The notes under the pieces: generated by a model | What the model saw: only the letters and a program-made list of their open reading frames with translations | Databases searched by the model: none | What the model was told of the DNA's origin: nothing | In this document: positions 20,845 through 55,519 of the stretch, in pieces | Layout: each line of letters opens with the position of its first letter | How positions within the stretch are numbered: the first letter of the stretch is position 1 | Translations under genes and position numbers: made by a program | From: Flavivirga aquimarina | GTDB taxonomy: Bacteria > Bacteroidota > Bacteroidia > Flavobacteriales > Flavobacteriaceae | DNA: 64,000 nt | Assembly (NCBI RefSeq): GCF_030540835.1 | Contig: NZ_JAUOEK010000045.1 | Location: 62,001 to 126,000 of the forward strand | Direction: 5' to 3'

Positions 20845-20900
20845 TAAAACTACAACAATTGAATACTTCATTTTTTTCAAAAAAGGGTGTAATATGTTGC
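20845..20900 (-). promoter_or_regulatory. PUL activator-type promoter, site 1
   Basis: On the minus strand: GCAACA (20900-20895), 14 nt including ACACCC, TTG (20880-20878), 25 nt, then TAGTTTTA (20852-20845). The spacing is the same as at seven other PUL promoters. It is 30 bp upstream of the 20814 start. Confidence 0.75.
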
Positions 20901-20956
20901 ATATTCTTTGAAAATCAATAAGATATTAGCCTATTAAGTGTTAATACAGGTGATAT

Positions 20957-23254
20957 TTAATAATTGAATTCTAAAACTTCTCCTTTTTTAGTCTCTATTT
21001 TCTTTACTTCATTATTATAACGAAGGTTTAGTGTATTACCTAACTTAGATATAACAACTAAAGTTTTTAACTTACTTTCTTCCCATTTCATATCAATCTC
21101 AAATCCTTTTTTTGCAACAAGACCTTTGATACTTCCTGATACCCATGTTGAAGGTAATGCAGGCAATATGTGAACCTCATCATTGTGGCTTTGTAGTAAC
21201 ATTTCTGTAATTCCAGATACTACACCAAAATTACCATCAATCTGAAAAGGAGGATGTACATCTAAAAGGTTTGGCAATGTTGATTTTCTTTGCAATGCTA
21301 AAATATTTTCATAAGCTTTATCTCCCTCTAACAACCTCGCATAAAAATTAATAATCCAAGCGCGGCTCCAACCTGTATGTCCACCTCCTTTAGATAATCT
21401 TCCTTCAATTGTTTTTTTAGCAGCTTCAAACAATTCTGGGGTTTTTGATTTCGTAATTTGGTTTGAAGGGTGCAAGGCATATAAATGAGAAATATGTCTG
21501 TGACCTGGTTCAGCCTCTTTTAATTCATCTGCCCATTCTAATAACCTACCATCACTACCAACTTTAAGAGGAGAAATTTGTTTTATTTTACTTTTTAAAA
21601 TAGCACTAAAATCATAATCTATATTTAAAATATCTGCTGCTTTAACACAATTACGGAATAACTCTAAAATAATAGCACGATCCATAGTAGGCCCCATGTT
21701 TAATGTCGCCTTTTCTCCATCTTTTGTCATAAATCTATTTTCAGGAGAAATAGAAGGTCCACTAACTAAAAAACCTGTGTTAGGATCTGTGACCATAAAA
21801 TCAATAAAGAACAAAGCTGCTTCTTTCATAATAGGATATGCTTTGTTTTTTAAATATTCTTGATCTTCTGTATATTCATAATGCGTAAATAAATGTTGGC
21901 AGCACCAAGCTGCTCCCATAGGCCACATCGCATGTCTGGCTTTTCCAAATGCAGCTGTAGAATGCCAAGCATCACTAGTATGGTGTGCAACAAATCCCCT
22001 TGCATTATAAGTTCTCTCTGCAGTAAGACGTCCCATTTCGCGTAAGTTGTCTATATAATCTAAGAAAGGTTCATGACATTCTGCTAAATTTGTCATCTCT
22101 GCCATCCAATAATTCATTTGAATATTGATGTTAATATGGTAGTCTGAATTCCAAGGAGGTCTAAATCCATTAGCCCAAATGCCTTGTAAATTGGCAGGTA
22201 AGTTGCCAGGTCTTGAACTACTAATTAATAAATACCTTCCAAATTGATATTGTAATTGTGTTAAATAATTATCTGTAGCTCCTTTTTTAACTTTTTTCAA
22301 TCTAACATCTGTAGGGAATTCTTCTCCAGTATGGTCTGATATTTTAAAAGAAACTCTATTGAATAAAGATTGATAGTCCGTTATATGTCTATCTAGAAGG
22401 GCCTTATATGGTACTTTTATTATTTTATTTAATGCAATGTCACATGCTTTTTTAGGATTTAAACCACGATAATTACTAGAGCCCACTACTTTAATTAATA
22501 ATTCATCTGCATTTGTAATTATTAATTTACCATTTTCTACTTTTGAAATTCCTCCTTTATTTTCAAAATAAACAATGGCATGAAATTTAACTCCATGACC
22601 GTTACCCACATGTTCAGAAAATTCAATACGATTTTCTGATACTAAAATTTGGGTTTTCTCATTACGTTTTACCTGAGCAGAAATATTGATTTCTCCTTTG
22701 GTATCTGCTGTATATTTGTAAACCATAACTTTATCTGGAAAGCTAGAAAAATATTCTCTTTTAAAAGCAATACCGTTATTCTTGAAAGTAGTGGTAACCA
22801 TAGATTTATTAATATCTAGCTCTCTTTTATAATTTGTTACAGAATCTAAATCAGGCGCTTCAATAAATAAATTACCCAACATTTGATACGTGTTTTTTTC
22901 TCTAGGATATGCCTTGTTTAAAATCTTATCTTGGACCATCTTTTCTGCACCAACATATTCTTGAGCAAACAACAGTTTTTGAATGCTATCAATATATTTA
23001 CCAGCATCTTTTTTGTCTCTATCATAGTTTTTACCTCCGGTCCAAATGGTTTCTTCATTTAAACAAATAATTTCTTTTTTAGGCGTACCGTAAATCATAG
23101 CTCCCAAATTTCCGTTCCCAATAGGAAGGCCTTGGTTCCATTTAGTTGTAGGTTGTTCAAACCATATTTTTAAAGGTGTATTAGGTGAATCTTCTTTAAG
23201 TTGCTCACAACTGATAAAGGTAATGAGCAGGAAAAAGGATAAAATTAGTTTCAT
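20957..23254 (-). CDS. GH95 alpha-L-fucosidase/alpha-L-galactosidase
   Basis: About 765 residues, lipoprotein signal MKLILSFFLLITFISCEQ. The GH95 layout is clear: the N-terminal beta domain opens with WFEQPTTKWNQGLPIGNG, LGAMIYG and NEETIWTGG; the (alpha/alpha)6 barrel carries NLQGIWANGFRPPWNSDYH, NIQMNYWMAE, SGPSISPENRF, HRHISHLYALHPSNQI and DVHPPFQIDGNFG. It cleaves terminal alpha-L-fucose, or alpha-L-galactose in some members. Full length. An in-frame ATG at 23299 would add 15 residues ahead of the signal and is less likely. It lies 3' of the esterase-propeller gene in the same operon. Confidence 0.93.
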   Translation of the reverse strand: MKLILSFFLLITFISCEQLKEDSPNTPLKIWFEQPTTKWNQGLPIGNGNLGAMIYGTPKKEIICLNEETIWTGGKNYDRDKKDAGKYIDSIQKLLFAQEYVGAEKMVQDKILNKAYPREKNTYQMLGNLFIEAPDLDSVTNYKRELDINKSMVTTTFKNNGIAFKREYFSSFPDKVMVYKYTADTKGEINISAQVKRNEKTQILVSENRIEFSEHVGNGHGVKFHAIVYFENKGGISKVENGKLIITNADELLIKVVGSSNYRGLNPKKACDIALNKIIKVPYKALLDRHITDYQSLFNRVSFKISDHTGEEFPTDVRLKKVKKGATDNYLTQLQYQFGRYLLISSSRPGNLPANLQGIWANGFRPPWNSDYHININIQMNYWMAEMTNLAECHEPFLDYIDNLREMGRLTAERTYNARGFVAHHTSDAWHSTAAFGKARHAMWPMGAAWCCQHLFTHYEYTEDQEYLKNKAYPIMKEAALFFIDFMVTDPNTGFLVSGPSISPENRFMTKDGEKATLNMGPTMDRAIILELFRNCVKAADILNIDYDFSAILKSKIKQISPLKVGSDGRLLEWADELKEAEPGHRHISHLYALHPSNQITKSKTPELFEAAKKTIEGRLSKGGGHTGWSRAWIINFYARLLEGDKAYENILALQRKSTLPNLLDVHPPFQIDGNFGVVSGITEMLLQSHNDEVHILPALPSTWVSGSIKGLVAKKGFEIDMKWEESKLKTLVVISKLGNTLNLRYNNEVKKIETKKGEVLEFNY

Positions 23255-23320
23255 TAGTGTTTTAGTTTTTGTGTCTTTCTTAAGTTTGTTTATTATCATA
23301 GCGCTTTGTAATCTTTATCA

Positions 23321-25135
23321 TTAATTATTTTCTTTTAATGGAATGAAAATGGTATAAGAATCGTTTCCTTTTTTAATAGCAAGACATAAAGTCTTAGGCT
23401 GATTGTTTTCTGTGTAAACAAAAGGACGTTCCATACGGCCAGGGGTTAAAAAAGAACCATCTTCAAGTAGTATTTTTTTATCGGTAATGTGATAGTGTTT
23501 TGCTTTTCCCCAATTCAAACCATCACTAGATGTCATCAACCCGATATAAGAGTGTGCATGAAAAACAGCATAAAAAACAGATTGCTCATTATCATACCAC
23601 ATAGAAACATCTTCGGTATCTAAATTACCTATCACAGGGTTGGTATGTATAGCAAAAGGGCCTTCTGGGGTTTTAGACACCGCTATTGCTTGATTTCTGA
23701 CAAACCTTTTTTCATCGGGTTTATCTCCTTTTATTATTAGATAATAACGATCATCTTTTCCTTGACAAATTGCTGGGTTTACTGCTATAGTTTCAATAGG
23801 TCCAGAGGGCTCTATCAATGCTTTGTCCATTCTTTTCCATGGGCCGTTAATAGAATTAGAAACAGCCACTCCTGTTCTTTGGTTTTTACGAAGTGTTCCT
23901 CTATCTTTATTTTTTAATGATTTTGTGCTTAGGGCTACTAAATCTTGATGTGTGTATTCTTCGCCGTTTAAATTTGTAGCGATATAGTACAGATAGTATT
24001 GGCCATTAAAATATTTAATTTTAGGATTGTGAGCAGTAATTTCGTCCCAATTACCTTTACCTCTACCTTTTAAAACCGTTTCTTTATATTCCCATGGTCC
24101 AGTAGAATTAGTTGATACGGCATGTGCAATTTCAGAAAAAGTTAGCCATCCATTAAATGTATATTTTCTCTTCCATCGTGAATAAAACAAATGGTATTTA
24201 CCACATTGTTCTTTTATGATGGAACCTCCCCAATTATAATATAATGAATCACGAAAAACTCCTTCTTTTTTTAAAGGCTTTATCTTTTTAGCAATATCGA
24301 GCTCTGCTACAGTTTTTTTCTGACTGAACACCCAATCAATCAATTTTGCTTCTTTCCATGCTAATTCATAAGAATTATGTCCCACATTTTTATAGACAGT
24401 TAAGCGAGCTTTGTTATTTTTTTGATTATAAAGAGATTCTATCATATCTGTAGATCCAGAAAGTGGTACCGTTGGGTCTTTATCACCATGAAATGCCCAA
24501 ATAGGAATTTTGCTTATTTTGTTAGCCATAGAAGGATCACCAGCTCCGCAAATTGGAATAGCTGCTGCTATTTGTTCGTGGTAACGCATTAGAAAATTCC
24601 AAGCAGCATACCCACCCATTGAAACTCCCGTAACATAAATCCGATTCTTATCTACCGCGTTTTCATGTATAACTTTGTCAAATATTTCTTTAGCCAATTT
24701 CATAGGGGTGCTTAAAGGGATACTGTCTATTGAATATGAGCCCTTTTTCCAAGGAACATTTACCCATTTTTGTTTTACAGGGCATTGAGGCATTAAAATA
24801 ATACACGGGTTTTCTTTTTGAACTTTTTCATCCATCCAACCTGCAACCCAAGAACGTAGCTGTTTTACATTATCATTTCCACGTGATCCCGCTCCATGAA
24901 AAGAAAGTAACAAAGGATATTTCTTTTTAGGGTTATAGTTAGGAGGCAAAAACAATCTATAAGGCATTTTCGTTCCATTGCTATCTGTATAAACATGAGC
25001 AGTTGTGTTTTGCACATAAAAAGATTGTTCTTTTTCTTTAAGGTTATGTATGGAAAAAGCCCCCTCTGAATAGATTGTTTGGGAAAACTGAAGCTGTGCT
25101 ATTAAACACAAAAATAATACTATGACTTTTTTCAC
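23321..25135 (-). CDS. Esterase fused to a GH43/GH117-like beta-propeller
   Basis: A 604-residue secreted protein (signal ends LQFSQTIYSEG; GTG start). Residues about 35-270 are an alpha/beta-hydrolase of the CE1/feruloyl- or PHB-depolymerase-like type: LLSFHGAGSRGNDN, the nucleophile elbow GVSMGGYAAW, HGDKDPTVP and NVGHNSYE give Ser, Asp and His. Residues about 285-604 are a beta-propeller with SEIAHAVSTNSTGPW, AHNPKIKYFNGQYYLYYIATN, NGPWKRMDKALIEPSGP and LEDGSFLTPGRMERP, related to the proteins at 17768 and 27007. It probably removes an acyl group and then a sugar from the same glycan end. The GH95 gene follows in the same operon. Confidence 0.82.
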   Translation of the reverse strand: MKKVIVLFLCLIAQLQFSQTIYSEGAFSIHNLKEKEQSFYVQNTTAHVYTDSNGTKMPYRLFLPPNYNPKKKYPLLLSFHGAGSRGNDNVKQLRSWVAGWMDEKVQKENPCIILMPQCPVKQKWVNVPWKKGSYSIDSIPLSTPMKLAKEIFDKVIHENAVDKNRIYVTGVSMGGYAAWNFLMRYHEQIAAAIPICGAGDPSMANKISKIPIWAFHGDKDPTVPLSGSTDMIESLYNQKNNKARLTVYKNVGHNSYELAWKEAKLIDWVFSQKKTVAELDIAKKIKPLKKEGVFRDSLYYNWGGSIIKEQCGKYHLFYSRWKRKYTFNGWLTFSEIAHAVSTNSTGPWEYKETVLKGRGKGNWDEITAHNPKIKYFNGQYYLYYIATNLNGEEYTHQDLVALSTKSLKNKDRGTLRKNQRTGVAVSNSINGPWKRMDKALIEPSGPIETIAVNPAICQGKDDRYYLIIKGDKPDEKRFVRNQAIAVSKTPEGPFAIHTNPVIGNLDTEDVSMWYDNEQSVFYAVFHAHSYIGLMTSSDGLNWGKAKHYHITDKKILLEDGSFLTPGRMERPFVYTENNQPKTLCLAIKKGNDSYTIFIPLKENN

Positions 25136-25137
25136 AC

Positions 25138-25331
25138 TTATTCTATTTCAAATTGAACTAAATATTCCAACCCTTTCTTTTGAATTATTGAAACTCCCCA
25201 ACTTGGAATTTCTTTTTCCAGATTCCCTCTTTTAAATGTGGACTATATAAACTTGGTGCTTTTAGTTGTTTTTTTAGACTATTGTATATTATTATATAAT
25301 CTGCTCCGTCTTTTGCATAATTTATCTTGCA
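25138..25331 (-). pseudogene. Relic of a gene 3' end, family unknown
   Basis: The minus strand reads KINYAKDGADYIIIYNSLKK, QLKAPSLYSPHLK, then, after a frame change, NLEKEIPSWGVSIIQKKGLE and YLVQFEIE to a stop at 25138, two bases before the GTG of the next gene. The residue pattern looks like the tail of a secreted protein, but I do not recognise the family. It suggests that an operon gene was deleted here, leaving its last 60 codons. Confidence 0.4.
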
Positions 25332-25359
25332 TTACATAGATTAAGCTCAAGATCCTGTA

Positions 25360-26859
25360 TTAATTTTTAAATAATAATGCTTTCATGTCTTTAGGATTAT
25401 CATATAACACTTCCTTATTTTCCATTAACCTTTTATGTATATGATATGTAACATCCATCCAATCTCTGTCTTCAGCCCAAAGCGGTTTCATTAATTGTGT
25501 TTCCCATACCTTAAATTCATGTATTGCATCGTTAAAATCTTTCTTTTTTTCCTGAGACAAATCATTAGTTTCTGCTAAATCATGCTCAAGATTATAAAAG
25601 GTATAGCCATGGTTTTCTAAACCTATTAATTTATATAGCCCTATTCTTGCAGCAGATTCTTCCAACTTCCTCCAAAATAATTTTTTGTGAGGGTTTCCTT
25701 TTTTTTCTCCTTTTAAATAGGGTAATAAATTAACACCATCTAAAATTAAACCTTCTTCTTTATTTATATTGGCTGCTGCAATAGATGTTGTAAAAATATC
25801 TAGCGAGGAACTCAATCCAGAAAACATTTGATCTGACTTAATTACCGAAGGCCAACTTACAACAAATGGTACACGATGTCCTCCTTCAAATTCATTCCCT
25901 TTCCACCCTTTTAAAGGGCCTCCGCTAGAGTTGTTATTTGCTGCTCCCCCATTATCGCTTAAAAAATAGATAAGTGTGTTTTCTTCTAATTTTAAAGCTT
26001 TTAGTTTTTCTTGAATTTTTCCAATATTCTCATCTAAAGACCAAGTCATGGCTGCTAACTTTTGTCTTGGATGATTTTTATATTTTTCTAAATGTTCTCG
26101 CTTAGCTTCCATTGGTGTATGTACAGCATTGTAAGCTATATACATAAAAAAAGGTGTATCCTTATTTTGTTGTATGTATTTAACTGATTGATCACCTAAT
26201 ACATCTGTCATATATCCTTCAAAAACAACCCGCTCTCCATTATGCTGTAACATTTGTTTTTTTTGTGGGTTCTTTAATGGAAAATAAGATCGACTTCCTG
26301 TCTCAAAGCCATAAAACTCATCAAATCCTCTTTCATTTGGGTGATCAGATGTATCAAACCCTAAATGCCATTTCCCTAAGGCTATTGTTTTATATTCATT
26401 CTTCTTAAAAACATCTGCTATAGTTATTATATCGTCTGGAAGTCCAATATCACCCACATGGTGATCACCGGTGTTATTGGCTTCAAACCCATAACGCTGT
26501 TGATATTTTCCCGTTATTAAACCTGCCCTAGAAGGTGCACAAACCGAAGCACTTACATGAGCATCAGTTAAAATAACGCCACTTTTTGCTAATCTGTCAA
26601 TGTTAGGAGTTTCAAGATCTTTACTCCCCATAAAACCAAAATCGGCATACCCAGCATCATCAATTAAAATGACAATGATATTGGGTTTTCTTATCTCCTT
26701 TTTTTCACTAACAACTACCTCATCTTTATTTTTTATTGTGGCGCCTATCATGAATACCGCAGTAATAATCAATGAGGTTATAACCCAAATTTTTATTTTA
26801 GTAATTAATTTTATAGTGTTTTTACTAAACATAGAAACTCTATTTTTTATGTAAAACAT
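25360..26859 (-). CDS. Sulfatase (formylglycine type, S1 family)
   Basis: A 499-residue alkaline-phosphatase-fold sulfatase that hydrolyses sulfate esters. NIIVILIDDAGYADFGFMG supplies two metal-binding aspartates, and CAPSR supplies the cysteine that is oxidised to formylglycine (C-x-P-x-R) before ITGKYQQRYG. ALGKWHLGFD and LSDNGGAANN complete the site. The N-terminus has a hydrophobic signal/anchor (about 25-45). An ATG nine codons in (26832) gives a similar protein and would avoid overlap with a 30-codon open frame at 26840-26932. The maturation enzyme anSME is not in the window. The target sugar is unknown. Confidence 0.92.
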   Translation of the reverse strand: MFYIKNRVSMFSKNTIKLITKIKIWVITSLIITAVFMIGATIKNKDEVVVSEKKEIRKPNIIVILIDDAGYADFGFMGSKDLETPNIDRLAKSGVILTDAHVSASVCAPSRAGLITGKYQQRYGFEANNTGDHHVGDIGLPDDIITIADVFKKNEYKTIALGKWHLGFDTSDHPNERGFDEFYGFETGSRSYFPLKNPQKKQMLQHNGERVVFEGYMTDVLGDQSVKYIQQNKDTPFFMYIAYNAVHTPMEAKREHLEKYKNHPRQKLAAMTWSLDENIGKIQEKLKALKLEENTLIYFLSDNGGAANNNSSGGPLKGWKGNEFEGGHRVPFVVSWPSVIKSDQMFSGLSSSLDIFTTSIAAANINKEEGLILDGVNLLPYLKGEKKGNPHKKLFWRKLEESAARIGLYKLIGLENHGYTFYNLEHDLAETNDLSQEKKKDFNDAIHEFKVWETQLMKPLWAEDRDWMDVTYHIHKRLMENKEVLYDNPKDMKALLFKN

Positions 26860-27006
26860 CTTTAAGATTCAATAAATACTCCAATACAGAAAGTTCAATC
26901 TCTTTAGTCTTCTTAATATTTGTTACTTTCATGTTTACATATTGATACACATTAGACCAAAATAAACACAATTACATTTCATCTTAAGCTTTTTCTTTTT
27001 TTGATT

Positions 27007-28125
27007 TTACTCAAAACTAATCTTAAACACATGCGAACTACTGCCATATCCAGGTTTAACCTGAACGCCTGTAGCTAGATATAAGTAAGAGGGTATACCA
27101 TCTTTAAAAAGTAATTGTGCGCGTTCTAAATGACCATCTTTTTTTCCTCTATATGAAACAGCATCTTTTAAATGCTCTTCTCCAACATAATGAAGCAAAT
27201 CTTCATAAGAACGTTCTGTTTTATCAGCAGGAAAAGAAAAACCATTTCCAGATTTCCACAACAAACCGCCTCCTCTATTTCCTAAAGAGCCTCTAAAATC
27301 TCGACTCATTAGATATACTGAATCTTTCATTGTAAATGCGTAAGCATCTTCAAGTGGCATTTTTTCTTCGGTTACTCTTGTAGGCTTATGCACATAAGGC
27401 CCTTCAACAGCATCGGCTATTACAACACCATAGGAATAAACATATCCTTTCGGTTCTTTTCTTACTACAGATTTATGATATAAAAGATATTTACCCTTGT
27501 ACTTTATTAATGAGGGATTTGAAACTCCCAATCTTGCTGTATAATTCCAAACTGTTGAATCTTTTGTTTGTCGTAAGATCGTACCATCAGCTTCTGCTCC
27601 CTTAGCTGGTCTCCAGTTATCACTAAGATCATTGGCCACATACATGACAATACGCTGTGTTTTTAAATCGTTATTTTCATTTACTATAAAACAAAGTTGA
27701 TATTGCCCGTCTATATTACTAATGGTTGGATTGTGCGGCGAATTGAAAAGACTGTCTTTATCTTGTACAGCCACACCTATATATTTAAAAGGGCCTTCTG
27801 GATTATCACTTACGTAATGCCCAATTTCACAATCTTTAAACCATCCACTAAAATTTTCAGGTTGCGTTTTAGTAGACCATTGAGCAGCATATAAATGGAT
27901 TTTCCCATCTTTTCCTTTTATAGGTGATGATCCCCAGACATGCATACCTTCATTTTCAGCAGCGCGACCTATATATTCAAATTTCATTTTACCAGTAGTA
28001 ATTTTTGTTACTTGTTTATCATTAGCATCTTCCGTTTTTGTTTTCTTAGCTATGTTATTACAAGATAAACACCCAAGTATGAGTATTAATAATAATATTT
28101 TTTGTGATTTCATTTTGTTCTTCAT
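27007..28125 (-). CDS. GH43/GH117-like beta-propeller glycosidase, lipoprotein
   Basis: A 372-residue lipoprotein (signal ends LILGCLSCNN). It contains WGSSPIKGKDGKIHLYAAQW, CEIGHYVSDNPEGPF, SPHNPTISNIDGQYQLCFIVN, SNPSLIKYKGKYLLYHKSVV and LEDAYAFTMKDSVYLMSRD. Same architecture as 17768-18886 but clearly diverged, so it probably acts on a different linkage or terminal sugar. It lies upstream of a sulfatase on the same strand, 147 bp away, in what is probably the same transcription block. Confidence 0.75.
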   Translation of the reverse strand: MKNKMKSQKILLLILILGCLSCNNIAKKTKTEDANDKQVTKITTGKMKFEYIGRAAENEGMHVWGSSPIKGKDGKIHLYAAQWSTKTQPENFSGWFKDCEIGHYVSDNPEGPFKYIGVAVQDKDSLFNSPHNPTISNIDGQYQLCFIVNENNDLKTQRIVMYVANDLSDNWRPAKGAEADGTILRQTKDSTVWNYTARLGVSNPSLIKYKGKYLLYHKSVVRKEPKGYVYSYGVVIADAVEGPYVHKPTRVTEEKMPLEDAYAFTMKDSVYLMSRDFRGSLGNRGGGLLWKSGNGFSFPADKTERSYEDLLHYVGEEHLKDAVSYRGKKDGHLERAQLLFKDGIPSYLYLATGVQVKPGYGSSSHVFKISFE

Positions 28126-28549
28126 ACTGGTATTTTCAATAATGATTCTTTATGTTGATTTAAAAAGTAAGATATACTTCTTATTTAGTTACTATCATCA
28201 ATCTTTTCTATTTAGGTAGCCTCTAAAAAAACAAAACATAAAATTAATTAATGTTATCTCAAAAAGCGGGGTCATTTTGACTATAATTAGGGTGAATTAT
28301 GTCTATTTAAAAGAGAAAACCGAAGATTTAAGTTCTAAGAAAATCTAACAATCATGGCTTTAAAAAGAAACATCTTTTTATGTACAGATTAATATTAACT
28401 CTCTTTTTTATATTCGAAGTAACTAAAGACCATTATATATACAAAATGATGAAATAACACAGAGTTACAAAAACCGTTTAAATAGATATTTCGAAAAAAT
28501 TTAGACGATTTTATTGATTATATTATTTCACCATTTTGAATATAATAAC
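28126..28549. other. Intergenic region without a recognised gene
   Basis: 424 bp between the GH29 stop and the propeller gene start, very AT-rich. It contains weak, off-spacing look-alikes of the PUL promoter motif near 28232-28312 (AATTCACCC and TTTTTGAGA) but no TAnnTTTG at the right distance. No relic gene could be read on either strand. Confidence 0.5.
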
Positions 28550-29920
28550 TTAATCGTTTAAAAATATTTCAATTACAGGAATTTCAACATTTGGTTTGTT
28601 AACAGGTAATTTTAAGTTTATATCTTCTTTTTTCATTTTTTCTTTACCCCAGGCACCATGAGTTTTTCCTATTTTTATTTCTGAGGCATCGTGTAAAAAT
28701 TGTGCATATTTTATTTTTCCTTTCATTCCTTTCATTAAAAAATTCTGAATTGGGTAATCCAATAAATGCACGTACAAACGATTTGTTTTAGGATTGTAAG
28801 TTAACAACGAATTGGGTGGTGTAACAAATCCTTCGGGAGCTTGTGTGCAACTATAAATGGATCTAGAATTGTATTTCATCCAATTCCCCATACCTTCTAA
28901 GGCTTCATCGGCACGATAATCAAATGTTCCTCTTGCTGTTGGTCCCACATTTAATAGCACATTTCCTCCTTTACTTACAGATTCAATTAATAGGGTTAAT
29001 AATTGTTTGTTGTCTTTCCAAGTGTGTTCATCTCGGTAATATCCCCATGAACCAGAAAAGGTTTGACATGTTTCCCAAGGAACTTTTTTTCCATCTACTT
29101 CTGGCCATTTTTCTACTTTAAATTGTTCTGGAGTTGTAAAATCCCATCCACCAGCATACTCTTTTAAATCCAATCGGTCGTTAACCAAAATTTTTGGCTG
29201 AAGTTTACGAACCATTTTTATCAATTCAACAGATCCCCAATCGTCTCTACCTTTTCCAAACTCTCCTGGATAAGAAAAATCTAACCATAATAAGTCTACT
29301 TTTCCATAATTAGAAAGCAATTCTTTTACTTGATTTTTAAGGTATTTTCGATATACGGCCATATCGCGATTTTTGTTCAACTTGTCGTACTCTTCTTTAT
29401 TATTTGCTTTTATAGAATGTCTACTATCGATGGTAAAATCTGGATGATGCCAGTCAATTAACGAATAATAAAACCCAATACCCAAGCCTTCTGCTCGAAA
29501 AGCTTCTACCCATTCTTTAAGAATATCTTTACCGTAAGGCGTCTTTGTAATGTTATAATCTGAATAATCAGAATTGAACATACTAAATCCTTCATGATGC
29601 TTTGTGGTAATAACAGCGTATTTCATCCCAGCTGCTTTTGCTTTTTTTGCCCATTCTCTAGGGTTAAATAGGTCTGGGTTAAATACATCAAAATACTTTT
29701 GATAATCTTTATCTGAAATACGTTCACGCTTTTTTACCCATTCGTGACGTGCAGGTTGTGCATACAAGCCCCAGTGAATAAACATTCCAAACCTAGCTTC
29801 TGTCCACCAAGCCATACGCTCGGTTTTTTCTTTTTCAGTTTCGTTCCATATTTTCTTTTGAGAAAAACTTGAACCCCCTATTGCTAAAGTCAATAGTAAA
29901 ATAAGATGAATTTTTTTCAT
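28550..29920 (-). CDS. GH29 alpha-L-fucosidase
   Basis: A 456-residue enzyme with signal peptide (MKKIHLILLLTLAIGGSSFSQ). It retains the GH29 core: ARFGMFIHWGLYAQPARHEW, YAVITTKHHEGFSMFNS, GIGFYYSLIDWHHPDF, and DLLWLDFSYPGE, where D214 is the expected nucleophile. VSKGGNVLLNVGPTARG closes the barrel. It cleaves terminal alpha-L-fucosides with retention. At this length it has the catalytic domain and a short beta C-terminus, with no CBM. Last gene of an operon with two sulfatases and GH97 upstream. Confidence 0.93.
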   Translation of the reverse strand: MKKIHLILLLTLAIGGSSFSQKKIWNETEKEKTERMAWWTEARFGMFIHWGLYAQPARHEWVKKRERISDKDYQKYFDVFNPDLFNPREWAKKAKAAGMKYAVITTKHHEGFSMFNSDYSDYNITKTPYGKDILKEWVEAFRAEGLGIGFYYSLIDWHHPDFTIDSRHSIKANNKEEYDKLNKNRDMAVYRKYLKNQVKELLSNYGKVDLLWLDFSYPGEFGKGRDDWGSVELIKMVRKLQPKILVNDRLDLKEYAGGWDFTTPEQFKVEKWPEVDGKKVPWETCQTFSGSWGYYRDEHTWKDNKQLLTLLIESVSKGGNVLLNVGPTARGTFDYRADEALEGMGNWMKYNSRSIYSCTQAPEGFVTPPNSLLTYNPKTNRLYVHLLDYPIQNFLMKGMKGKIKYAQFLHDASEIKIGKTHGAWGKEKMKKEDINLKLPVNKPNVEIPVIEIFLND

Positions 29921-29941
29921 GTTTTTTGATATTATAATATA

Positions 29942-31549: not shown

Positions 31550-31559
31550 ATACTTGATT

Positions 31560-47853: not shown

Positions 47854-50001
47854 TTATTTAATAATAAATCTTAGCGAATTTGAAGTTTGATTTACAGATA
47901 TTTTTAAAACATAAATGCCACTTTTAAATGCCTTAGTTTCAATACTAATTATATTATCTTCAATAGTGTAAACTCTCTTAATCAATATGATCTGTCCTAG
48001 TTGATTCATTATTTGAACGTCTACTTTTTCAGAATTAAAATTTGATTTTAATTGAAGATTATCGCCTTTTTTAACAGGATTAGGGTACGCTTTTATTTTA
48101 TCGCTATTATTAATAATATCTGTAACACTTAGACTTTGCCCATCAAGTATTCTATTTATAAATCCAACCATTTCAATTAAAACATCTTCATATGCAGGCT
48201 TACCTGGATTAAAAAAAGCATGAACTTCTCCAGGATATATTACAGCTTCTGCATCTCCACCTTTGGCGTTTATAGCATCTGCAAATAAAGTACTTTGTTT
48301 GTGCGATATTGTTGTATCTGCATCACCATGCATCAGGATTACTGCAGGGGGTGTATCACTCAATTGAAAAATAGGAGAATTCGCTGCTTCACTTGGTATA
48401 TTTTGTTTATACCAATTACCTACACCAAAGTCTCCTGCATCATTTACAAAATCATAAATACCATTGAATCCAATAAATCCTAAAACGCCTTCATACCGTT
48501 GAGCTATCAATGCAGCTAATGGTGTACCTGCAGAACCTCCGCTAAAAAACACTTTTGTCATATCAAAATTATATTGTTCAGCGTTTTCTAAAGCCCATTG
48601 ATAGGCTGTATCTACATCTTCTAATGCTAAAGAGAAAGTTCCACTAGAACCTGAACATCTGTAAGACACGCCTAAAGAAGCAACACCTAAGTTCTCTGCT
48701 AAATACTCTCCATGAGGAGAATAAGAAGCATCAGAAGACTCTGGACGTCCACCAGCCCATCCACCTCCATGTACCCATATATGTACAGGAAACTTTTCAG
48801 TAGTGTTTTCATTAATAACTGGAGTTGTTAACCTTAAAGGCAACTCATGTCCTACAATAGGAAAATCTACTGTAGCTATAGGTTCGTCTAGTTGATAACT
48901 TACATATTCAAAAGTTTTTTCAGCCTCTACTATAAAATTATAAGTATTTCCTTTAGGTAAAGCAATTGAAAGATCATCAGTAGATTTTAGACCATCTTGT
49001 ATTTGTACTGAAACCAATCCGTTATTTGGCCAATTTTCAGATGGAGTAAAAGTAAGAACGTTAGAAGGAGATAGAGTCCAAATTCCAGCAGCTTCTGTGT
49101 CACTTTTGTTTACATAAACTTTTGGGTAATCTGATGTTTCATCTATAGGTTGATCAAATATAATTGAAATAGGACTATCAACAGATAATCCTGTTTTGTC
49201 TTCGGGTAAAACTTCTCTAACAGAAAATTCAGGAATCACTAAATCACTATATTCAGTTGCCAAACGGTTATATTCATTTTGAAAATCAGTATCATTAAGG
49301 GTACCGTCATACAATGAAAACTCCACCATTTCTGTATGAGAATAAGTTTTTGCATCTCCTTTAATAGCAAAAAGATTAAATCTAAGACCATCATTACTGG
49401 TGATCATAGTATCATTAATTTTGCCTACAGTAATAATAGGAGACGTATTGTCAAAATACTTGTAATTTCCATTTGCATCTATTTTAAAACCAAAAAAGAA
49501 AAATCCATCTATAGGAACAGTCCCTAATGTTAAACGCCTATAATTACCTGTCTTAGAGTAGTCTAAGCAAACTCTACCATCAGAAGTTCTAACCAATCTT
49601 ATTCCTGTAACAGAACTCCAGGTAGGGATGCTATAGTTGCTCACTAAAGAAGCTTCTTTATCTCCACTTTTTTGATCAAGCACACTACCTACATAAAATA
49701 TACTATAAGTTTTATCTGAAACATATGCTCCACTTCCTTCTATTTTAAGAAAAGAACCATCTTTATTAAAACGTACAGTAGTTTTTCCTGGGTAAGTTTC
49801 ATGAGATTGTTCAGCTCCAAGATTAGTATTACTCTGTGTGGCATCTGGGTAGCCATCAATTTGATTTTCCCAAAGCGTTACAGATCCTAAATTATCTGCT
49901 ACAATGCCTTTAGCATTTTCTAATAGTACTACTTTTGTTTGGCTGAATCCGGCCAAACTAGATAATACAAATACAAAAATAAGAGCATTTAAGTTTTTCA
50001 T
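47854..50001 (-). CDS. Modular carbohydrate esterase with Big_5-like and T9SS domains
   Basis: 715 residues. Signal (ends LAGFSQTKVV), a LamG/concanavalin-like domain (about 25-245), an Ig-like Big_5 domain (about 250-360, VREVLPEDKTGLSVDSPISI, LTFTPSENWPNNGLVSVQI), then an alpha/beta-hydrolase (about 365-635): IWVHGGGWAGG oxyanion motif, FFSGGSAGTP nucleophile elbow, MHGDADTTISH and GEVHAFFNP. A T9SS sorting domain ends it. It resembles acetyl- or feruloyl-type esterases and probably strips acyl groups from the polymer outside the cell. It follows a sulfatase by 32 bp in one operon. Confidence 0.85.
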   Translation of the reverse strand: MKNLNALIFVFVLSSLAGFSQTKVVLLENAKGIVADNLGSVTLWENQIDGYPDATQSNTNLGAEQSHETYPGKTTVRFNKDGSFLKIEGSGAYVSDKTYSIFYVGSVLDQKSGDKEASLVSNYSIPTWSSVTGIRLVRTSDGRVCLDYSKTGNYRRLTLGTVPIDGFFFFGFKIDANGNYKYFDNTSPIITVGKINDTMITSNDGLRFNLFAIKGDAKTYSHTEMVEFSLYDGTLNDTDFQNEYNRLATEYSDLVIPEFSVREVLPEDKTGLSVDSPISIIFDQPIDETSDYPKVYVNKSDTEAAGIWTLSPSNVLTFTPSENWPNNGLVSVQIQDGLKSTDDLSIALPKGNTYNFIVEAEKTFEYVSYQLDEPIATVDFPIVGHELPLRLTTPVINENTTEKFPVHIWVHGGGWAGGRPESSDASYSPHGEYLAENLGVASLGVSYRCSGSSGTFSLALEDVDTAYQWALENAEQYNFDMTKVFFSGGSAGTPLAALIAQRYEGVLGFIGFNGIYDFVNDAGDFGVGNWYKQNIPSEAANSPIFQLSDTPPAVILMHGDADTTISHKQSTLFADAINAKGGDAEAVIYPGEVHAFFNPGKPAYEDVLIEMVGFINRILDGQSLSVTDIINNSDKIKAYPNPVKKGDNLQLKSNFNSEKVDVQIMNQLGQIILIKRVYTIEDNIISIETKAFKSGIYVLKISVNQTSNSLRFIIK

Positions 50002-50033
50002 AATTATTTATTTTAAAGAAAAAGAGAATGCTT

Positions 50034-51560
50034 CTATAGTTTCAACCCTTCAAAAATTTGAATCATTTCTTTTAACTTTTGGGGATTTTCTTTTGCTAAG
50101 TTCTTTTGTTGACCAATATCGTTTTTAAGATCGTACAGTTTGTATTCTAAAGAATTTCCAGTTTCGATCCCTACTTTTTTATTGATAGTATTTCCTTTAT
50201 ATGGCGGAATCATAATCCAATCGCCACTACGCAAAGCAGTATGAGATTTAGCTTCAATTATTAAATGATCACGACCTTTTTGAGATTTTCCTAATAAGGT
50301 GTTGAGTAAATCTTTACTATCTGTTGTACTCTCATCTATACCTACAAGATTCCCTAAGGAAGCCAATAAATCTATTTGGCATACTATAGCATCAGACACA
50401 TTTGGTGTGATATGATTTTTCCAGTAAGTAATAAAGGGCACACGTGTACCTGCCTCAAAAAGACTGTATTTACCACCACGTAAACCACCTTTAGGATCAT
50501 GATTCCCTAATTTCTCTACAGCTTCATCGTAATAACCATCATTTAAAACAGGGCCATTGTCACTAGAAAATACAATTAATGTATTTTCTAAAACGCCTTC
50601 TTCTTCTAATGTTTTCATAAATTCACCAATACACCAATCAGCTTCTAAAATAACATCACCTCTTGGTCCCATACCAGATTTTCCAACAAATCGAGGATGC
50701 GGTGTTCTAGGTACATGAGGTTGCTGCATGGCATAGTAAAGAAAAAATGGTTTGTCTTTATGTGTCTTTACATAGTTTTTTGCTTTTTCTAAAAAATGAT
50801 CAGCCATATCTATATCGCTCCATTTTGCAGCTTCACCACCTTTCATATATCCAATTCTTGGAATGCCATTTACAATACTATTATTATGTCCATGATGCCA
50901 TGTCATAGTTAGCATTTCTGGGTTAGATTTTGCTGTAGGTTCTCCTTTAAAATTCTTTTTATAATCAACTTCAATAGGATCCTTTTTGTCTAAGCCAACA
51001 ACATGGCCATTATCAATATATACTGTCGGCACACGGTCTTGCGTAGCAGCTAGAATATAAGAGTCATCAAAACCAACTTCATTAGGGCCTGGTTTAATCG
51101 TTTCGTTCCAGTTTACATACCCAGAACCTAAGCCTAAATGCCATTTTCCTATAATAGCTGTTTGATACCCTGCTTTAGATAGCATTTTGGGTAACGTTTG
51201 TTGTTTTGTATCTATTAATAATGGCGCATTACCTGCTAATATTCTTGCTTTTTTATTTCGCCAAGGGTACACCCCCGTTAACAAAGCATAACGACTTGGT
51301 GTGCAAGTAGCTGAAGATGCATATCCATTGGTAAATTTCACACCTCCAGTTGCTAAGGCATCTATGTTAGGTGTTTGAAGCTCAGTAGCTCCATAACAAC
51401 TTAAATCACCATATCCTAAATCATCTAAATAAATGACAATAATATTTGGTTTGTTATTTTTAGTATCAACAGCAGTTTGTGATTCCTTTGTACTGTTTTT
51501 ACAACTAAAACTCACAAATATGATAGCTACTACTAATAATCTGTAAAATGTATTTCTCAT
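50034..51560 (-). CDS. Sulfatase (formylglycine type), lipoprotein
   Basis: A 508-residue lipoprotein (signal ends IFVSFSCKNSTK). NIIVIYLDDLGYGDLSCYG, CTPSRYALLTGVYPWR (formylglycine motif), AIIGKWHLGLGSGYVNW and VFSSDNGPVLNDG mark a standard active site. It is the nearest sulfatase to SusC/SusD and is cotranscribed with a secreted esterase. Its promoter motif is 335 bp upstream, which leaves an unusually long 5' leader. The leader holds one open frame (73 codons, running into the gene) without a convincing start. Confidence 0.93.
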   Translation of the reverse strand: MRNTFYRLLVVAIIFVSFSCKNSTKESQTAVDTKNNKPNIIVIYLDDLGYGDLSCYGATELQTPNIDALATGGVKFTNGYASSATCTPSRYALLTGVYPWRNKKARILAGNAPLLIDTKQQTLPKMLSKAGYQTAIIGKWHLGLGSGYVNWNETIKPGPNEVGFDDSYILAATQDRVPTVYIDNGHVVGLDKKDPIEVDYKKNFKGEPTAKSNPEMLTMTWHHGHNNSIVNGIPRIGYMKGGEAAKWSDIDMADHFLEKAKNYVKTHKDKPFFLYYAMQQPHVPRTPHPRFVGKSGMGPRGDVILEADWCIGEFMKTLEEEGVLENTLIVFSSDNGPVLNDGYYDEAVEKLGNHDPKGGLRGGKYSLFEAGTRVPFITYWKNHITPNVSDAIVCQIDLLASLGNLVGIDESTTDSKDLLNTLLGKSQKGRDHLIIEAKSHTALRSGDWIMIPPYKGNTINKKVGIETGNSLEYKLYDLKNDIGQQKNLAKENPQKLKEMIQIFEGLKL

Positions 51561-51895: not shown

Positions 51896-51951
51896 CAAAG
51901 TTAATAGGTTTGATCTGGTTTAATTTCTCAATTTAGGGAGGAGAATGTTTC
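51896..51951 (-). promoter_or_regulatory. PUL activator-type promoter, site 6
   Basis: Minus strand: GAAACA (51951-51946), TTCTCCTCCCTAAA, TTG (51931-51929), 25 nt, and a perfect TAACTTTG box (51903-51896). It is oriented toward the sulfatase-esterase operon, 335 bp from its start codon. Confidence 0.75.
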
Positions 51952-52165: not shown

Positions 52166-52252
52166 ATATGTTGCAAATACTTGTTTTGCCTATTTTGCAA
52201 CATATGTAGGTGGTTTTTGGTACGCAAAGAAACATTCAAGTTAATATATTTG
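52166..52252 (+). promoter_or_regulatory. PUL activator-type promoter, site 7, with an extra palindrome
   Basis: Plus strand: GCAACA (52197-52202), 14 nt, TTG (52217-52219), 25 nt, and a perfect TATATTTG box (52245-52252), 33 bp upstream of the GH2 start. Its GCAACA is the right arm of an inverted repeat: ATATGTTGCAAA at 52166-52177 and TTTGCAACATAT at 52194-52205. Confidence 0.78.
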
Positions 52253-52285: not shown

Positions 52286-55200
52286 ATGAAAAAAACAATA
52301 CGCATTAAGAACTTCGTTCTTCTTTTTGCTCTTAGCTTAGCATTATCAGGGTTTAACAACAACAATCCCAAAAACAGCATAATAGATAGAATTAGTTTTG
52401 ATGCGAATTGGAAATTTATTCAACAAGATATACCTGGTGCAGAACAAATTGGTTTTAATGATGCTTCTTGGAAGACCTTAAATCTGCCCCATGATTGGAG
52501 TATTGAAGGTGCGTATAATGAAAATAATCCCATGGGAGGACAATGTGGTTATTTACCAGCAGGTTATGGGTGGTATAGAAAAACCATTACCGTTCCTCAA
52601 GATTGGAAAGGAAAACATATTGAAATTGCTTTTGATGGTGTCTTTATGAATAGTACCGTTTGGGCAAACGGACAAGAACTAGGAACTAGACCTTATGGAT
52701 GGGTTTCTTTTGCTTATGATATTAGCGATATAGCACAAAAATCTGAGACCATCACTTTTGCAGTTCGTGTTGACAATAACAAACAACCTTCGGCGCGTTG
52801 GTACACAGGAAGTGGTATTTATGCACATACCTGGATAGACATAAAAAATAATACCCACATTGATAGAGATGGCATCTTTATAAGAACAGAAGGAGAAAAT
52901 ATATTTATAGAAACAGATCTGTTTAATAAAGACGAAAAATGCAAAAACGCCAAGCTAGTTACTTCTATTATTGATGAAAATGGGACAACGGTTGTCTCTA
53001 CTAAAGACAAAATAAAATTAGAGAAAGATTTACTAGTCAAAACAAAATTACATATCGAAAACCCGAAACGTTGGTCAACTGAAACCCCATATTTATATAC
53101 ACTAAAAACAGAATTACTTAGGGGTAAAAAAGTTGTAGATGTTGTTGAAACAAAATTTGGTGTTCGAGATATTGAGTGGAAAGCAGAAACAGGCATGTGG
53201 TTAAATGGCAAAAACGTAAAACTGCAAGGCGTTTGTAACCACCAAGATGCTGGAGCTTTAGGAGCTGCTGTACCCTATAAAATTTTACGTTTCAGAATTC
53301 AACAATTAAAAGACATGGGGGTTAATGCTATTAGAACAGCCCACAATCCGCAAACACCCGATTTTTATGATATATGCGACGAATTAGGCATGCTGGTAAT
53401 GGATGAGATTTTTGATGGTTGGATGAAAAAGGCTAAAAACGACTACGGAGCACATCATTTTGATACATGGTGGAAACAAGATTTAACCGATTGGATTAAA
53501 AGAGATAGAAACCATCCATCAATAGTTATTTATAGTGTTGGTAATGAAACACGAGGAGTTATAGGTAAAGATTTAGTTGCTACCTGTAACCTTTTAGACC
53601 CTACACGCCCAGTAACATCAGGACATTCTGGTTCGGAATATATGAATGTTTTAGGAGTAAACGGAAGTAGTGAAAAGAAAGGGTATTTAGAAAATTTGAA
53701 AACCAAACAAAAAGGAAAAGTTTTTATTGGTACAGAAAACACGCATACATGGCAAGTAAGAGGTTATTACCGAACTAAAACTTGGTTTAGAGATGGTTTT
53801 CCTAACAAAAACCAAAGACCTTATGCCATTGCGGATTTAACAGAAAAAGAAGTTTTTACACACGATTGGACCGAAGAAGCTGATAGAAAAAACAGAAAAC
53901 AAATTTTTAATTCAAGCTATGATAATGCTACAGTACGAGTATCTTCTCGCTTAAACATAGCACAACTTCGTGATATTCCTGCTTATGCAGGATCTTTTCG
54001 TTGGACAGGTCATGATTATATTGGAGAAGCAGGCTATGTACACGGAGGCTGGCCTTTTAGAGCTTTTATGGGAGGTGCTATAGATTTAGCAAATTTCGAA
54101 AAAGACTTATTCTATTTATATCAAAGCCAATGGACCACTAAACCAATGGTACATGTATTACCGCATTGGACACATCCTAAAATGGCTTTAGGAACAGAAA
54201 TTCCTGTTTGGGTGTATTCTAATTGTGATGAAGTGGAATTGTTCTTTAATAACACATCATTAGGAAAACAAAAGCCAGGGAAAAACTGGGAAAACATGCA
54301 ATGCCAATGGATGGTAAAATGGCAACCAGGAACTTTAAAAGCTATAGGTTACAAAAACGGAACTGTTGTTTCTGAAAAAATTATAAAAACAGCTAATACG
54401 CCTTCTTCTATTGAATTATCTATAGACGGAGATCCTCTAGAAAATAAAACGGATGATATTGTACAAGTTCGTGTTACTACTACAGACAATAAAGGAACAT
54501 TTTATCCGTATGGAGAAAACAGAACGTATTTTAATGTATTAGGTTCTGGTAAAATAAAAGCTTTAGATAATGGAAGTCCCGTAGATGTAGAACAGCATGT
54601 AGGGCCTAATCATAGAAAAGCATTTTATGGATTAACTCGCGCTTACATTATACCTACAAACTCATCGGGAAGTATCAACTTGTTAGCGAGCTGTATTTTA
54701 GGAGAAAAGAAACTAATTACCTCTAATAAAATAAGTATAGATACTAAAATCATCAATTTAAGAGGTGATAAAATCACTCCCAAAACTCAAATTTTCTACA
54801 CAACAAATGGTGATACGCCAACACAGAAATCAACGCTCTATAATGGTAGTTTTGAAATTAGCATAGAAACTACAGTAAAAGCATTAGTGGTTGTTGACGG
54901 GAAACCAATACAAATTTTAGTAGAGACTTTCGGAAAAAATGAAGGGTTTACATGGAATAAAATAATAGGAAGCAATATTTTAATTGGAGAACAAGCTGAA
55001 GAAGCTACCTTAAATAACGCAATAATATCATCAAAAGGAACGAATTTTAACGGTAAAGGTTTTGTATCCCTAACTAAAAAAGACGCATCTATTTCATGGT
55101 ATCAAGAAAATGATGGAGGTGCTGGTAAAGCAAATTTATTCATTCGCTATAGCTCTAACATAGAAAATGCTTCTGGAAATCATATCAAATTGACTGTGAA

Positions 55201-55366
55201 TGGAAAAGTAATCAAAAACAAACTCTTTTTACCTAATACAAACCATCTAGGAAATTCGTGGAATAAAGTAAAAATCCCTATTCAAATAGATCGTGGAGCT
55301 AACACCATAAAATTAGAAACACTAAACAATAAAAAACTTTTAATTGACGAGATTTCAATCAATTAA
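52286..55366 (+). CDS. GH2 beta-galactosidase-like enzyme with C-terminal CBM
   Basis: 1026 residues, signal peptide (about 1-25, ALSLALSGFNNNN). Jelly roll, Ig-like and barrel domains in the GH2 order: LPHDWSIEGAYNENNPMGGQ, AGYGWYRKTI, KLQGVCNHQDAGALGAAVP, IRTAHNPQTPDFYD, then VGNETRG (acid/base E421) and VFIGTENTHTW (nucleophile E484). After the barrel come further beta domains, a chitobiase-C-like segment (KTQIFYTTNGDTPTQKSTLY) and a CBM6-like tail (about 900-1026). It hydrolyses terminal beta-galactosides or related sugars. First gene on the plus strand, 230 bp before SusC. Confidence 0.92.
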   Translation: MKKTIRIKNFVLLFALSLALSGFNNNNPKNSIIDRISFDANWKFIQQDIPGAEQIGFNDASWKTLNLPHDWSIEGAYNENNPMGGQCGYLPAGYGWYRKTITVPQDWKGKHIEIAFDGVFMNSTVWANGQELGTRPYGWVSFAYDISDIAQKSETITFAVRVDNNKQPSARWYTGSGIYAHTWIDIKNNTHIDRDGIFIRTEGENIFIETDLFNKDEKCKNAKLVTSIIDENGTTVVSTKDKIKLEKDLLVKTKLHIENPKRWSTETPYLYTLKTELLRGKKVVDVVETKFGVRDIEWKAETGMWLNGKNVKLQGVCNHQDAGALGAAVPYKILRFRIQQLKDMGVNAIRTAHNPQTPDFYDICDELGMLVMDEIFDGWMKKAKNDYGAHHFDTWWKQDLTDWIKRDRNHPSIVIYSVGNETRGVIGKDLVATCNLLDPTRPVTSGHSGSEYMNVLGVNGSSEKKGYLENLKTKQKGKVFIGTENTHTWQVRGYYRTKTWFRDGFPNKNQRPYAIADLTEKEVFTHDWTEEADRKNRKQIFNSSYDNATVRVSSRLNIAQLRDIPAYAGSFRWTGHDYIGEAGYVHGGWPFRAFMGGAIDLANFEKDLFYLYQSQWTTKPMVHVLPHWTHPKMALGTEIPVWVYSNCDEVELFFNNTSLGKQKPGKNWENMQCQWMVKWQPGTLKAIGYKNGTVVSEKIIKTANTPSSIELSIDGDPLENKTDDIVQVRVTTTDNKGTFYPYGENRTYFNVLGSGKIKALDNGSPVDVEQHVGPNHRKAFYGLTRAYIIPTNSSGSINLLASCILGEKKLITSNKISIDTKIINLRGDKITPKTQIFYTTNGDTPTQKSTLYNGSFEISIETTVKALVVVDGKPIQILVETFGKNEGFTWNKIIGSNILIGEQAEEATLNNAIISSKGTNFNGKGFVSLTKKDASISWYQENDGGAGKANLFIRYSSNIENASGNHIKLTVNGKVIKNKLFLPNTNHLGNSWNKVKIPIQIDRGANTIKLETLNNKKLLIDEISIN

Positions 55367-55463
55367 ATAAAATTAATAAACGCAATGCTGTTTTTTAAAC
55401 AATTCTACTGCTATTTATAAAAAACTGACTACAAGACATTTAACAAGATTTATTAACGTTCTG

Positions 55464-55519
55464 GTAACATTTTAACCCCTTAATTGAGAAAACCAGAACA
55501 TCTAAACCTTTTAAATTTG
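55464..55519 (+). promoter_or_regulatory. PUL activator-type promoter, site 8 (SusC/SusD operon)
   Basis: GTAACA (55464-55469), TTTTAACCCCTTAA, TTG (55484-55486), 25 nt, and a perfect TAAATTTG box (55512-55519), 77 bp upstream of the first SusC start. Confidence 0.78.

What the first reader, a model, noticed from the sequence alone, without database searches (positions are those of the whole stretch)
20845..55519. One promoter architecture with fixed spacing at eight transcription units of the locus
Seen directly: at 20845-20900, 37887-37942, 39907-39962, 44773-44828, 47341-47396, 51896-51951 (all minus), 52197-52252 and 55464-55519 (plus) the same pattern recurs: G(C/T/A)AACA, 14 nt (usually with ACnCC), TTG (ATG once), 25 nt, then a TAnnTTTG-like box (five full matches or one-off). 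The 25-nt gap is longer than expected for a Bacteroidota -33/-7 pair, so the upstream half looks like an activator site overlapping the -35 region rather than core promoter. It marks SusC/D, GH2, all units encoding T9SS-exported enzymes, and two further glycosidase units. Inference: one dedicated regulator outside the window.
Basis: partly seen in the sequence, partly recalled or inferred. Interest (0 to 1): 0.82.

Follow-up and report, generated by a model that had tools for sequence, protein, structure and literature searches.

The report
Distant sensor controls algal-sugar gene cluster
Eight promoters of a seaweed-polysaccharide gene cluster in a marine bacterium share one control site at a fixed distance, and comparison with related genera points to a single sugar-sensing regulator, encoded elsewhere in the genome, that probably switches the whole set on.

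Summary
All eight sites are where stated, with a fixed 48-nt step from the first base of GnAACA to a TAnnTTTG-like sigma-A box. The tight core occurs exactly five times in the 5.29-Mb genome: four in the window and one before a T9SS-tailed rhamnosidase on another contig. A profile built only from other genera places all eight sites among its twelve best hits in this genome (E 5e-10 to 0.009). Two of the eight (20845, 52197) are weak on window sequence alone.

GCAACA sites lie upstream of its orthologues (two or more in 13 of 13 named loci) but not of paralogues (0 of 21). Facing the HTCS gene, the operator is a direct repeat of period 22, the layout proposed for Bacteroides HTCSs. Facing targets, GCAACA starts at about -60 and TGAGA at about -39, as expected for an activator.

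New member of a known kind: an HTCS regulon, split over at least three loci, with an operator my paper searches did not find. Binding, activation and substrate are inferred.

The parts
20845..20900 (-). weak operator plus -7 box before a DUF4971 gene (19159-20814) and a GH43-like gene (17768-18886)
   Evidence: leave-one-out 9.5 bits; R2 E 2.4e-5
37887..37942 (-). operator plus -7 box before the fn3 protein (35162-37765) and downstream sulfatase, GH97 and fucosidase genes
   Evidence: R2 E 4.6e-10, the best hit in the genome; same site before the orthologue in G002
39907..39962 (-). operator plus -7 box before a T9SS protein with F5/8 type C domain (38163-39833)
   Evidence: exact core; R2 E 8.8e-9
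44773..44828 (-). operator plus -7 box before two T9SS Glyco_hydro_cc proteins (42540-44717, 40379-42526)
   Evidence: exact core; R2 E 1.3e-7
47341..47396 (-). operator plus -7 box (two letters off) before a ricin-lectin-domain protein (45187-47271)
   Evidence: exact core; R2 E 7.3e-5
51896..51951 (-). operator plus -7 box before a sulfatase (50034-51560) and a T9SS esterase (47854-50001)
   Evidence: core with 3 mismatches; leave-one-out 29.2 bits; R2 E 9.8e-4; equivalent site before the orthologous sulfatase in G323, C46:73264
52197..52252 (+). weak operator plus -7 box before a GH2 gene (52286-55366)
   Evidence: leave-one-out 3.0 bits; R2 E 0.009; equivalent sites before orthologues in G323 (C46:73009) and G002 (C12:309642)
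55464..55519 (+). operator plus -7 box before the SusC/SusD operon (55597 onward)
   Evidence: exact core; R2 E 5.1e-10; equivalents before orthologues in G002 and G323
35162..37765 (-). 867-aa protein with fn3 domains; first gene of a site-bearing unit, 67-78% identical across the four compared loci
40379..44717 (-). two Glyco_hydro_cc proteins with T9SS sorting domain
47854..51560 (-). sulfatase and T9SS-tailed esterase
52286..55366 (+). GH2 (beta-galactosidase-like)
55597..63501 (+). SusC-like, SusD-like and a second TonB-dependent-receptor-like protein; the gene row continues past the window
20957..35015 (-). downstream enzymes: GH95, esterase/GH43, sulfatases, GH43-like, GH29, GH97

Best explanation
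The eight sites are operators of one HTCS that is encoded outside the window (G000:C53:80127-84236, minus strand, 1369 aa). Shown by computation: the operator is GCAACA, about 15 nt, then TGAGA, with the first G 48 nt upstream of a sigma-A -7 box. It marks at least 11 promoters in this genome: eight in the window, a LacZ-type GH2 at C64:132353, a T9SS-tailed rhamnosidase at C89:2985 and the sulfatase divergent from the HTCS at C53:84421. The same kind of site accompanies the HTCS orthologue across the family. Inferred: an oligosaccharide of a sulfated, probably fucose-containing algal polysaccharide binds the periplasmic propeller. The kinase then phosphorylates the fused receiver, and the AraC-type domain binds as a dimer, one subunit on GCAACA (from -60) and one on TGAGA (from about -39), contacting sigma-A polymerase to switch on uptake and degradation genes together. 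A second operator with a true direct repeat faces the HTCS gene itself, so it probably also controls its own level.
For: (1) A profile from 37 sites of other genera finds all 8 window sites plus the HTCS-adjacent, LacZ and rhamnosidase sites among its 12 best hits in 5.29 Mb. (2) The profile from the 8 window sites hits (E<=1e-3) 7 of 16 genomes with an HTCS orthologue against 3 of 381 without; leaving out the window's own genome, 6 of 15. (3) The HTCS lies inside the motif-bearing regions of G002 and G383 and between two sites in G169. (4) Two or more GCAACA/TGTTGC in the 500 nt before the HTCS in 13 of 13 named orthologue loci (9 of 9 not seen before) against 0 of 21 paralogue loci. (5) Facing the HTCS the operator is a direct repeat of period 22: 5.62 of 7 letters against 1.96 +/- 0.48 at other shifts, 0 of 2000 shuffles, 21 sites. 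In the window's genome the only exact GCAACA-N16-GCAACA lies 128 nt before the HTCS start. (6) A -7 box at offset 48 in 36 of 104 non-own sites, mean 2.0 at other offsets; in 17 regions fetched because of the HTCS and not because of the window profile, 16 of 59, mean 1.0 elsewhere. (7) In the 6 orthologue genomes not used for R2, 9 of its 10 hits (E<=1, 228,800 bases) fall in the intergenic region before the HTCS or before genes preceding it. (8) HTCS domain set complete; DNA-binding domain 77-97% identical among 13 orthologues although sensors fall to 42%. (9) Two R2 hits outside the training set precede sulfatase/GH97 operons with homologues in the window.
Against: In target promoters the proximal TGAGA is not a recognisable copy of GCAACA: shift 22 gives 2.93 of 7 letters, shift 24 gives 3.0, so the dimer reading there is weaker. 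R2 at E<=5e-5 hits 10 of 16 orthologue genomes and 0 of 381 others, but those ten are its nine training genomes and the window's own; of the six other orthologue genomes none passes 5e-5 and one (G382) passes 1e-3, while 13 of 381 others pass 1e-3. In the local search the hits in these genomes are mostly weak (best 4.6e-5, next 0.0016 to 0.018), G212 has none, and the best hit in 21 control loci is 0.016. Exact GCAACA-N16-GCAACA lies at the HTCS in only 6 of 16 orthologue genomes; 15 of its 21 matches lie elsewhere. Sites 20845 and 52197 are weak on sequence alone. R2 also hits C75:131879 (E 7e-6), where no gene follows on that strand. No expression or binding data were available.
Confidence: 0.87

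Rival explanations
1. Another regulator in the flank, such as the two cupin-AraC proteins at L031:12083-12961 and 12988-13869, reads the sites, and the HTCS merely co-occurs as part of the same gene set.
For: AraC-type proteins lie about 6 kb beyond the LacZ gene on the same contig, and AraC proteins bind sites of this kind (recalled). The genes of C64:42001-62000 and C64:146000-150951 were not scanned with Pfam.
Against: They sit beside peptidase and oxidoreductase genes and had no blastp match (E<=1e-20, 60% coverage) in the compared loci of G002, G323 and G383. In the window's genome the HTCS is far from the cluster yet has the operator in front of it.
Confidence: 0.06
2. GnAACA is the -35 element of an ECF sigma factor and the sites are alternative-sigma promoters.
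For: ECF -35 elements often contain AAC (recalled), and an ECF sigma gene lies at 11183-11767.
Against: The conserved box is the primary-sigma TAnnTTTG at a fixed 48-nt step, while the ECF-like motif reported for F. psychrophilum has a CGT box (passages of PMC9723704). ECF sites do not explain the direct repeat or the HTCS link.
Confidence: 0.03
3. The similarity is left over from recent duplication of upstream regions together with paralogous enzyme genes, without regulatory function.
For: The sites at 39907 and 44773 are very alike beyond the core, and some genes are paralogues.
Against: The sequence between the conserved blocks varies while blocks and spacing are kept across genera and before unrelated genes: SusC, GH2, sulfatase, rhamnosidase.
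Confidence: 0.03
4. Chance pattern in AT-rich intergenic DNA.
For: The loose pattern is only 2.7-fold enriched.
Against: Held-out and cross-genus tests.
Confidence: 0.01

Closest known systems
Bacteroides thetaiotaomicron HTCS regulons (comparative reconstruction, PMC3878776; passages seen)
   Same: HTCS with AraC-type DNA-binding domain; operators upstream of SusC/D and enzyme units; direct repeat with about two helix turns between copies (21 bp average there, 22 here in front of the HTCS gene); a member distant from the locus is mentioned there too (HTCS_Hep).
   Different: Target promoters here carry an asymmetric GCAACA...TGAGA operator at a fixed distance from the -7 box; the repeat is good only in front of the regulator gene; the regulator in this genome is not next to the cluster; targets include T9SS-tailed enzymes of marine flavobacteria.
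SusR-like regulators of Bacteroides (PMC3878776; passages seen)
   Same: Direct-repeat operators controlling glycan uptake genes.
   Different: Repeat distance 67 or 77 bp there, 22 here; the protein here is an HTCS.
Flavobacterial sigma-A promoters (PMC9723704; passages seen)
   Same: TAnnTTTG box at -12 to -5.
   Different: No GCAACA/TGAGA operator was mentioned in the passages I saw.

Membership tests
HTCS | Propeller sensor, Y_Y_Y, HisKA, HATPase_c, receiver and AraC-type HTH in one chain | tested here: met
   All six in P0003 by Pfam and in orthologues P0001 and P0002
HTCS | Phospho-acceptor His and receiver Asp motifs | tested here: met
   SHELRTP and ISDILMP read directly in the translation; that these are the motifs is recalled
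HTCS operator | Direct repeat with centres about 21 bp apart | tested here: met
   Period 22 in front of the HTCS gene, 21 of 25 orthologue genomes looked at gave such a site, 0 of 2000 shuffles
HTCS operator | Same direct repeat in target promoters | tested here: inconclusive
   Distal copy invariant by selection; the proximal TGAGA block keeps the register but is no recognisable copy
HTCS | Binds the operator and activates on sensing an oligosaccharide | not testable with these tools
   No binding or expression data
Flavobacterial sigma-A promoter | TAnnTTTG box | tested here: met
   7 of 8 window sites full or one-off; peak at offset 48 in other genomes
SusR-like regulon | Direct repeat with 67 or 77 bp distance | tested here: inconclusive
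   Shifts 8-69 were scanned (67 included, 77 not): the only strong peak is at 22; 67 is not among the six best
ECF sigma promoter | -10 element of ECF type (CGT) | tested here: not met
   No such conserved block in the logo of 46 sites, which were selected for the sigma-A box

The most novel reading that the evidence does not exclude
One HTCS uses two operator grammars: a symmetric direct repeat (GCAACAT-N15-GCAACAT) without a -7 box at the fixed distance in front of its own gene, and an asymmetric GCAACA...TGAGA operator locked at -60/-39 in front of its targets. The same protein would then limit its own level while activating a regulon that can scatter over the genome, and the grammar is kept across many flavobacterial genera while the sensor half diverges, perhaps to other glycans.
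Probability: 0.4. Interest if true: 0.62.

Novelty: new member of a known kind. Interest (0 to 1): 0.5.

Why it matters
HTCSs are major switches of glycan use in Bacteroidota, and the direct-repeat operators that I found described are for gut Bacteroides. Here a flavobacterial HTCS is tied to a concrete operator, a fixed promoter register and a target list that crosses locus borders. The pattern can be scanned to find distant members of a polysaccharide regulon (as with the rhamnosidase on C89) and to pair orphan regulators with gene clusters. It gives a short list of promoter fusions and gel shifts that would test it directly.

Tried and rejected
Looked for the regulator near the cluster: Pfam scans of 29 of 39 window ORFs and of 10 of 12 ORFs of L031 showed the cupin-AraC pair and the ECF sigma at 11183-11767; neither is tied to the motif. 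Genes of L034 and L032 (the outer flanks) were compared by blastp with other loci but not scanned with Pfam. The matches with 3 mismatches are at the level of the control. C75:131879 (R2 E 7e-6) and C19:17880 (R1 E 0.017) were judged likely chance: C75 has no gene on that strand, and C19:17880 is not in the R2 list. R1 hits in G204, G238 and G365 lack an HTCS orthologue; the G204 hit lies inside a coding frame, the other two were not looked at. A simple direct-repeat reading of target promoters was tested and is weak. Substrate: Pfam, NCBIfam and PDB sequence searches give fucosidases, galactosidases, sulfatases and a fucolectin-like domain but no proven backbone enzyme, so a fucose-containing sulfated polysaccharide is inference only; host names such as Tamlana fucoidanivorans and Mariniflexile fucanivorans are suggestive only. 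Paper searches (listings seen) showed no report of this operator; they cover open PMC papers only, and none of the 6 papers listed contains GCAACA as a word start. Passages were seen of PMC3878776, PMC9723704 and PMC12125979 (about a Vibrio regulator); no paper was read whole.
Full report
WHAT IS THERE. The window is G000:C64:62001-126000 of a 5.29-Mb draft genome. The HTCS found in that genome is 92% identical to one of Flavivirga jejuensis, so the organism is probably a Flavivirga or near relative (inference). The finding covers a polysaccharide-utilization locus with SusC/SusD, two GH2 (one beyond the window), GH95, GH29, GH97, GH43-like genes, several sulfatases, esterases and enzymes with a T9SS sorting domain.

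THE OBSERVATION. All eight sites are at the stated places. Four of eight boxes match TAnnTTTG fully, three miss one letter and one misses two. The loose pattern is weakly enriched (9 against 3.3 expected, 2 of 100 shuffles), but the core AACAnnTnnACnCCnnAATTGAGA is found exactly only five times in the genome, four of them here. With each site held out in turn, six score 29-38 bits against at most 15 for any other position in the window; 20845 (9.5) and 52197 (3.0) do not stand out.

GENOME-WIDE SCAN. A profile of the eight sites (R1) finds, beyond its own training sites, C89:2985 (E 4e-8), C64:132353 (E 3e-4) and C53:84422 (E 0.005) as the next best hits. The first lies before a T9SS-tailed alpha-L-rhamnosidase, the second before a LacZ-type GH2, and the third between a sulfatase and a divergent 1369-aa protein.

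OTHER GENERA. In 397 genomes of the family R1 (E<=1e-3) hits 10, and G002 (6 sites), G323 (5) and G383 (3) have clusters. Their loci share genes with the window's, and G002 and G383 share a 1354/1374-aa protein (58% identical) that is an HTCS. Its orthologue in the window's genome is C53:80127-84236, 77% identical to that of G002 and open over 1369 aa; by its coordinates the TAA that one search reports is the gene's own stop codon. So the regulator is on another contig, at least 25 kb from that contig's nearer end, while in G002 it lies in the same region as the cluster.

CO-OCCURRENCE. Sixteen of 397 genomes carry a clear HTCS orthologue (50-100% identity); G334 at 34% was set aside as a paralogue and counted with the others. 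R1 hits 7 of these 16 and 3 of the other 381; without the window's genome, on which R1 was trained, 6 of 15. The two same-genus genomes in the sample, G019 and G248, have neither R1 sites nor the orthologue. A second profile, R2, was made from 37 sites of other genera only. On the window's genome its twelve best hits are all eight stated sites plus C89, C53, C64:132353 and C75:131879. In the family R2 reaches E<=5e-5 in 10 of 16 orthologue genomes and 0 of 381 others, and E<=1e-3 in 11 of 16 and 13 of 381. The ten are its nine training genomes and the window's own, so the fair tests of R2 are its specificity, the window's genome and the six untrained orthologue genomes. Of those six none passes 5e-5 and one passes 1e-3. 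A local search of the fetched regions of these six (228,800 bases) gives 10 hits up to E 1, of which 9 lie in the intergenic region before the HTCS or before genes that precede it; five of six genomes have one there (E 4.6e-5, 0.0016, 0.011, 0.014, 0.018), G212 has none. The best hit in 21 paralogue loci is E 0.016, so the support in these six genomes comes from position more than from score. Their SusC-facing sites often have a 47-nt step. The training sites of R2 had been found with the help of window-derived scans, so the test on the window's genome is not wholly independent. Two R2 hits that were not in the training set, G383:C1:757425 and G121:C1:2358079, lie before sulfatase-GH97-containing operons with homologues in the window, far from the HTCS.

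THE OPERATOR AND ITS READER. Two or more GCAACA or TGTTGC lie in the 500 nt before the HTCS in 13 of 13 named orthologue loci (9 of them not among the genomes seen before), but in none of 21 paralogue loci (three have one, eighteen none). Sites scoring 17 or more with the window's six-site matrix occur in 8 of 13 orthologue loci and 0 of 21 paralogue loci. Facing the HTCS gene the site is a direct repeat GCAACAT-N15-GCAACAT with period 22 (5.62 of 7 letters against a mean of 1.96; 0 of 2000 shuffles; 21 sites). The exact form GCAACA-N16-GCAACA was sought in 22 genomes: 21 matches against 4 for the reversed pattern; 6 of the 21 lie at the HTCS (6 of 16 orthologue genomes), and in the window's genome the only match is the one before the HTCS. 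For B. thetaiotaomicron HTCSs, direct repeats with 21 bp average distance have been proposed (passages of PMC3878776). Among 13 orthologues the DNA-binding domain keeps 77-97% identity to the window's HTCS while the sensor falls to 42%; in 11 paralogues the domain has 30-51%. This fits a conserved operator.

THE PROMOTER REGISTER. Of 104 intergenic GCAACA upstream of genes outside the window's genome and its congener, 36 have a TAnnTTTG-like box (5 of 6 letters) exactly 48 nt on, against a mean of 2.0 at other offsets. In the 17 regions that were fetched because of the HTCS and not because of R1, it is 16 of 59, with 6 at 47 and a mean of 1.0 at offsets other than 48. The logo of the 46 sites with such a box (own and congener included) has three blocks: GCAACAT-T, A(C)nC, and TGAGA at +21 to +25.

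MECHANISM. Shown: the sites, their spacing, their spread, their link to the HTCS and its domains. Inferred: ligand sensing, phosphorylation, dimer binding, activation and self-control. The substrate is not settled; fucosidases, galactosidases, sulfatases and a fucolectin-like domain suggest a fucose-containing sulfated polysaccharide.

WHAT SPEAKS AGAINST. The proximal half is not a recognisable copy of GCAACA in target promoters. Six of 16 orthologue genomes show no R2 hit at E<=5e-5 and five none at E<=1e-3. Two of eight window sites are weak. C75:131879 scores well without a gene behind it.

VERDICT. It is a new member of a known kind.

Noticed in passing
G000:C89:2801-3041 (L033): Orphan T9SS-tailed rhamnosidase with an F5/8 domain carries an exact copy of the operator, on another contig than the cluster.
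   Followed up: yes
window 19159-20814 and 45187-47271: Both genes have the same best match in G002 (79-80% identity over the aligned part): paralogues, the longer one with an added ricin-type domain.
   Followed up: no
operator positions +12 to +16 in many genomes: The middle block reads ACnCC in some promoters and GGTG or GGGTG in others, as if it could be present on either strand.
   Followed up: partly
window 52150-52200: An inverted TGTTGC lies about 30 nt upstream of GCAACA in the GH2 promoter; similar inverted copies occur between the HTCS and its divergent neighbour.
   Followed up: partly
G229:C5:133447 (L169): A second, different HTCS-sized gene also has a GCAACA 83 nt upstream.
   Followed up: no
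L031:12083-13869: Two tandem cupin-AraC regulators next to peptidase genes, about 6 kb beyond the LacZ gene.
   Followed up: partly
window 35162-37765: 867-aa protein conserved at 67-78% in the four compared loci; sequence searches find only fn3-type domains in its second half, so the first half may be an undescribed enzyme.
   Followed up: partly
G000:C75:131879-131930: A good-scoring operator (R2 E 7e-6) with no gene on that strand; a VKOR/C39 peptidase protein is encoded on the other strand.
   Followed up: partly
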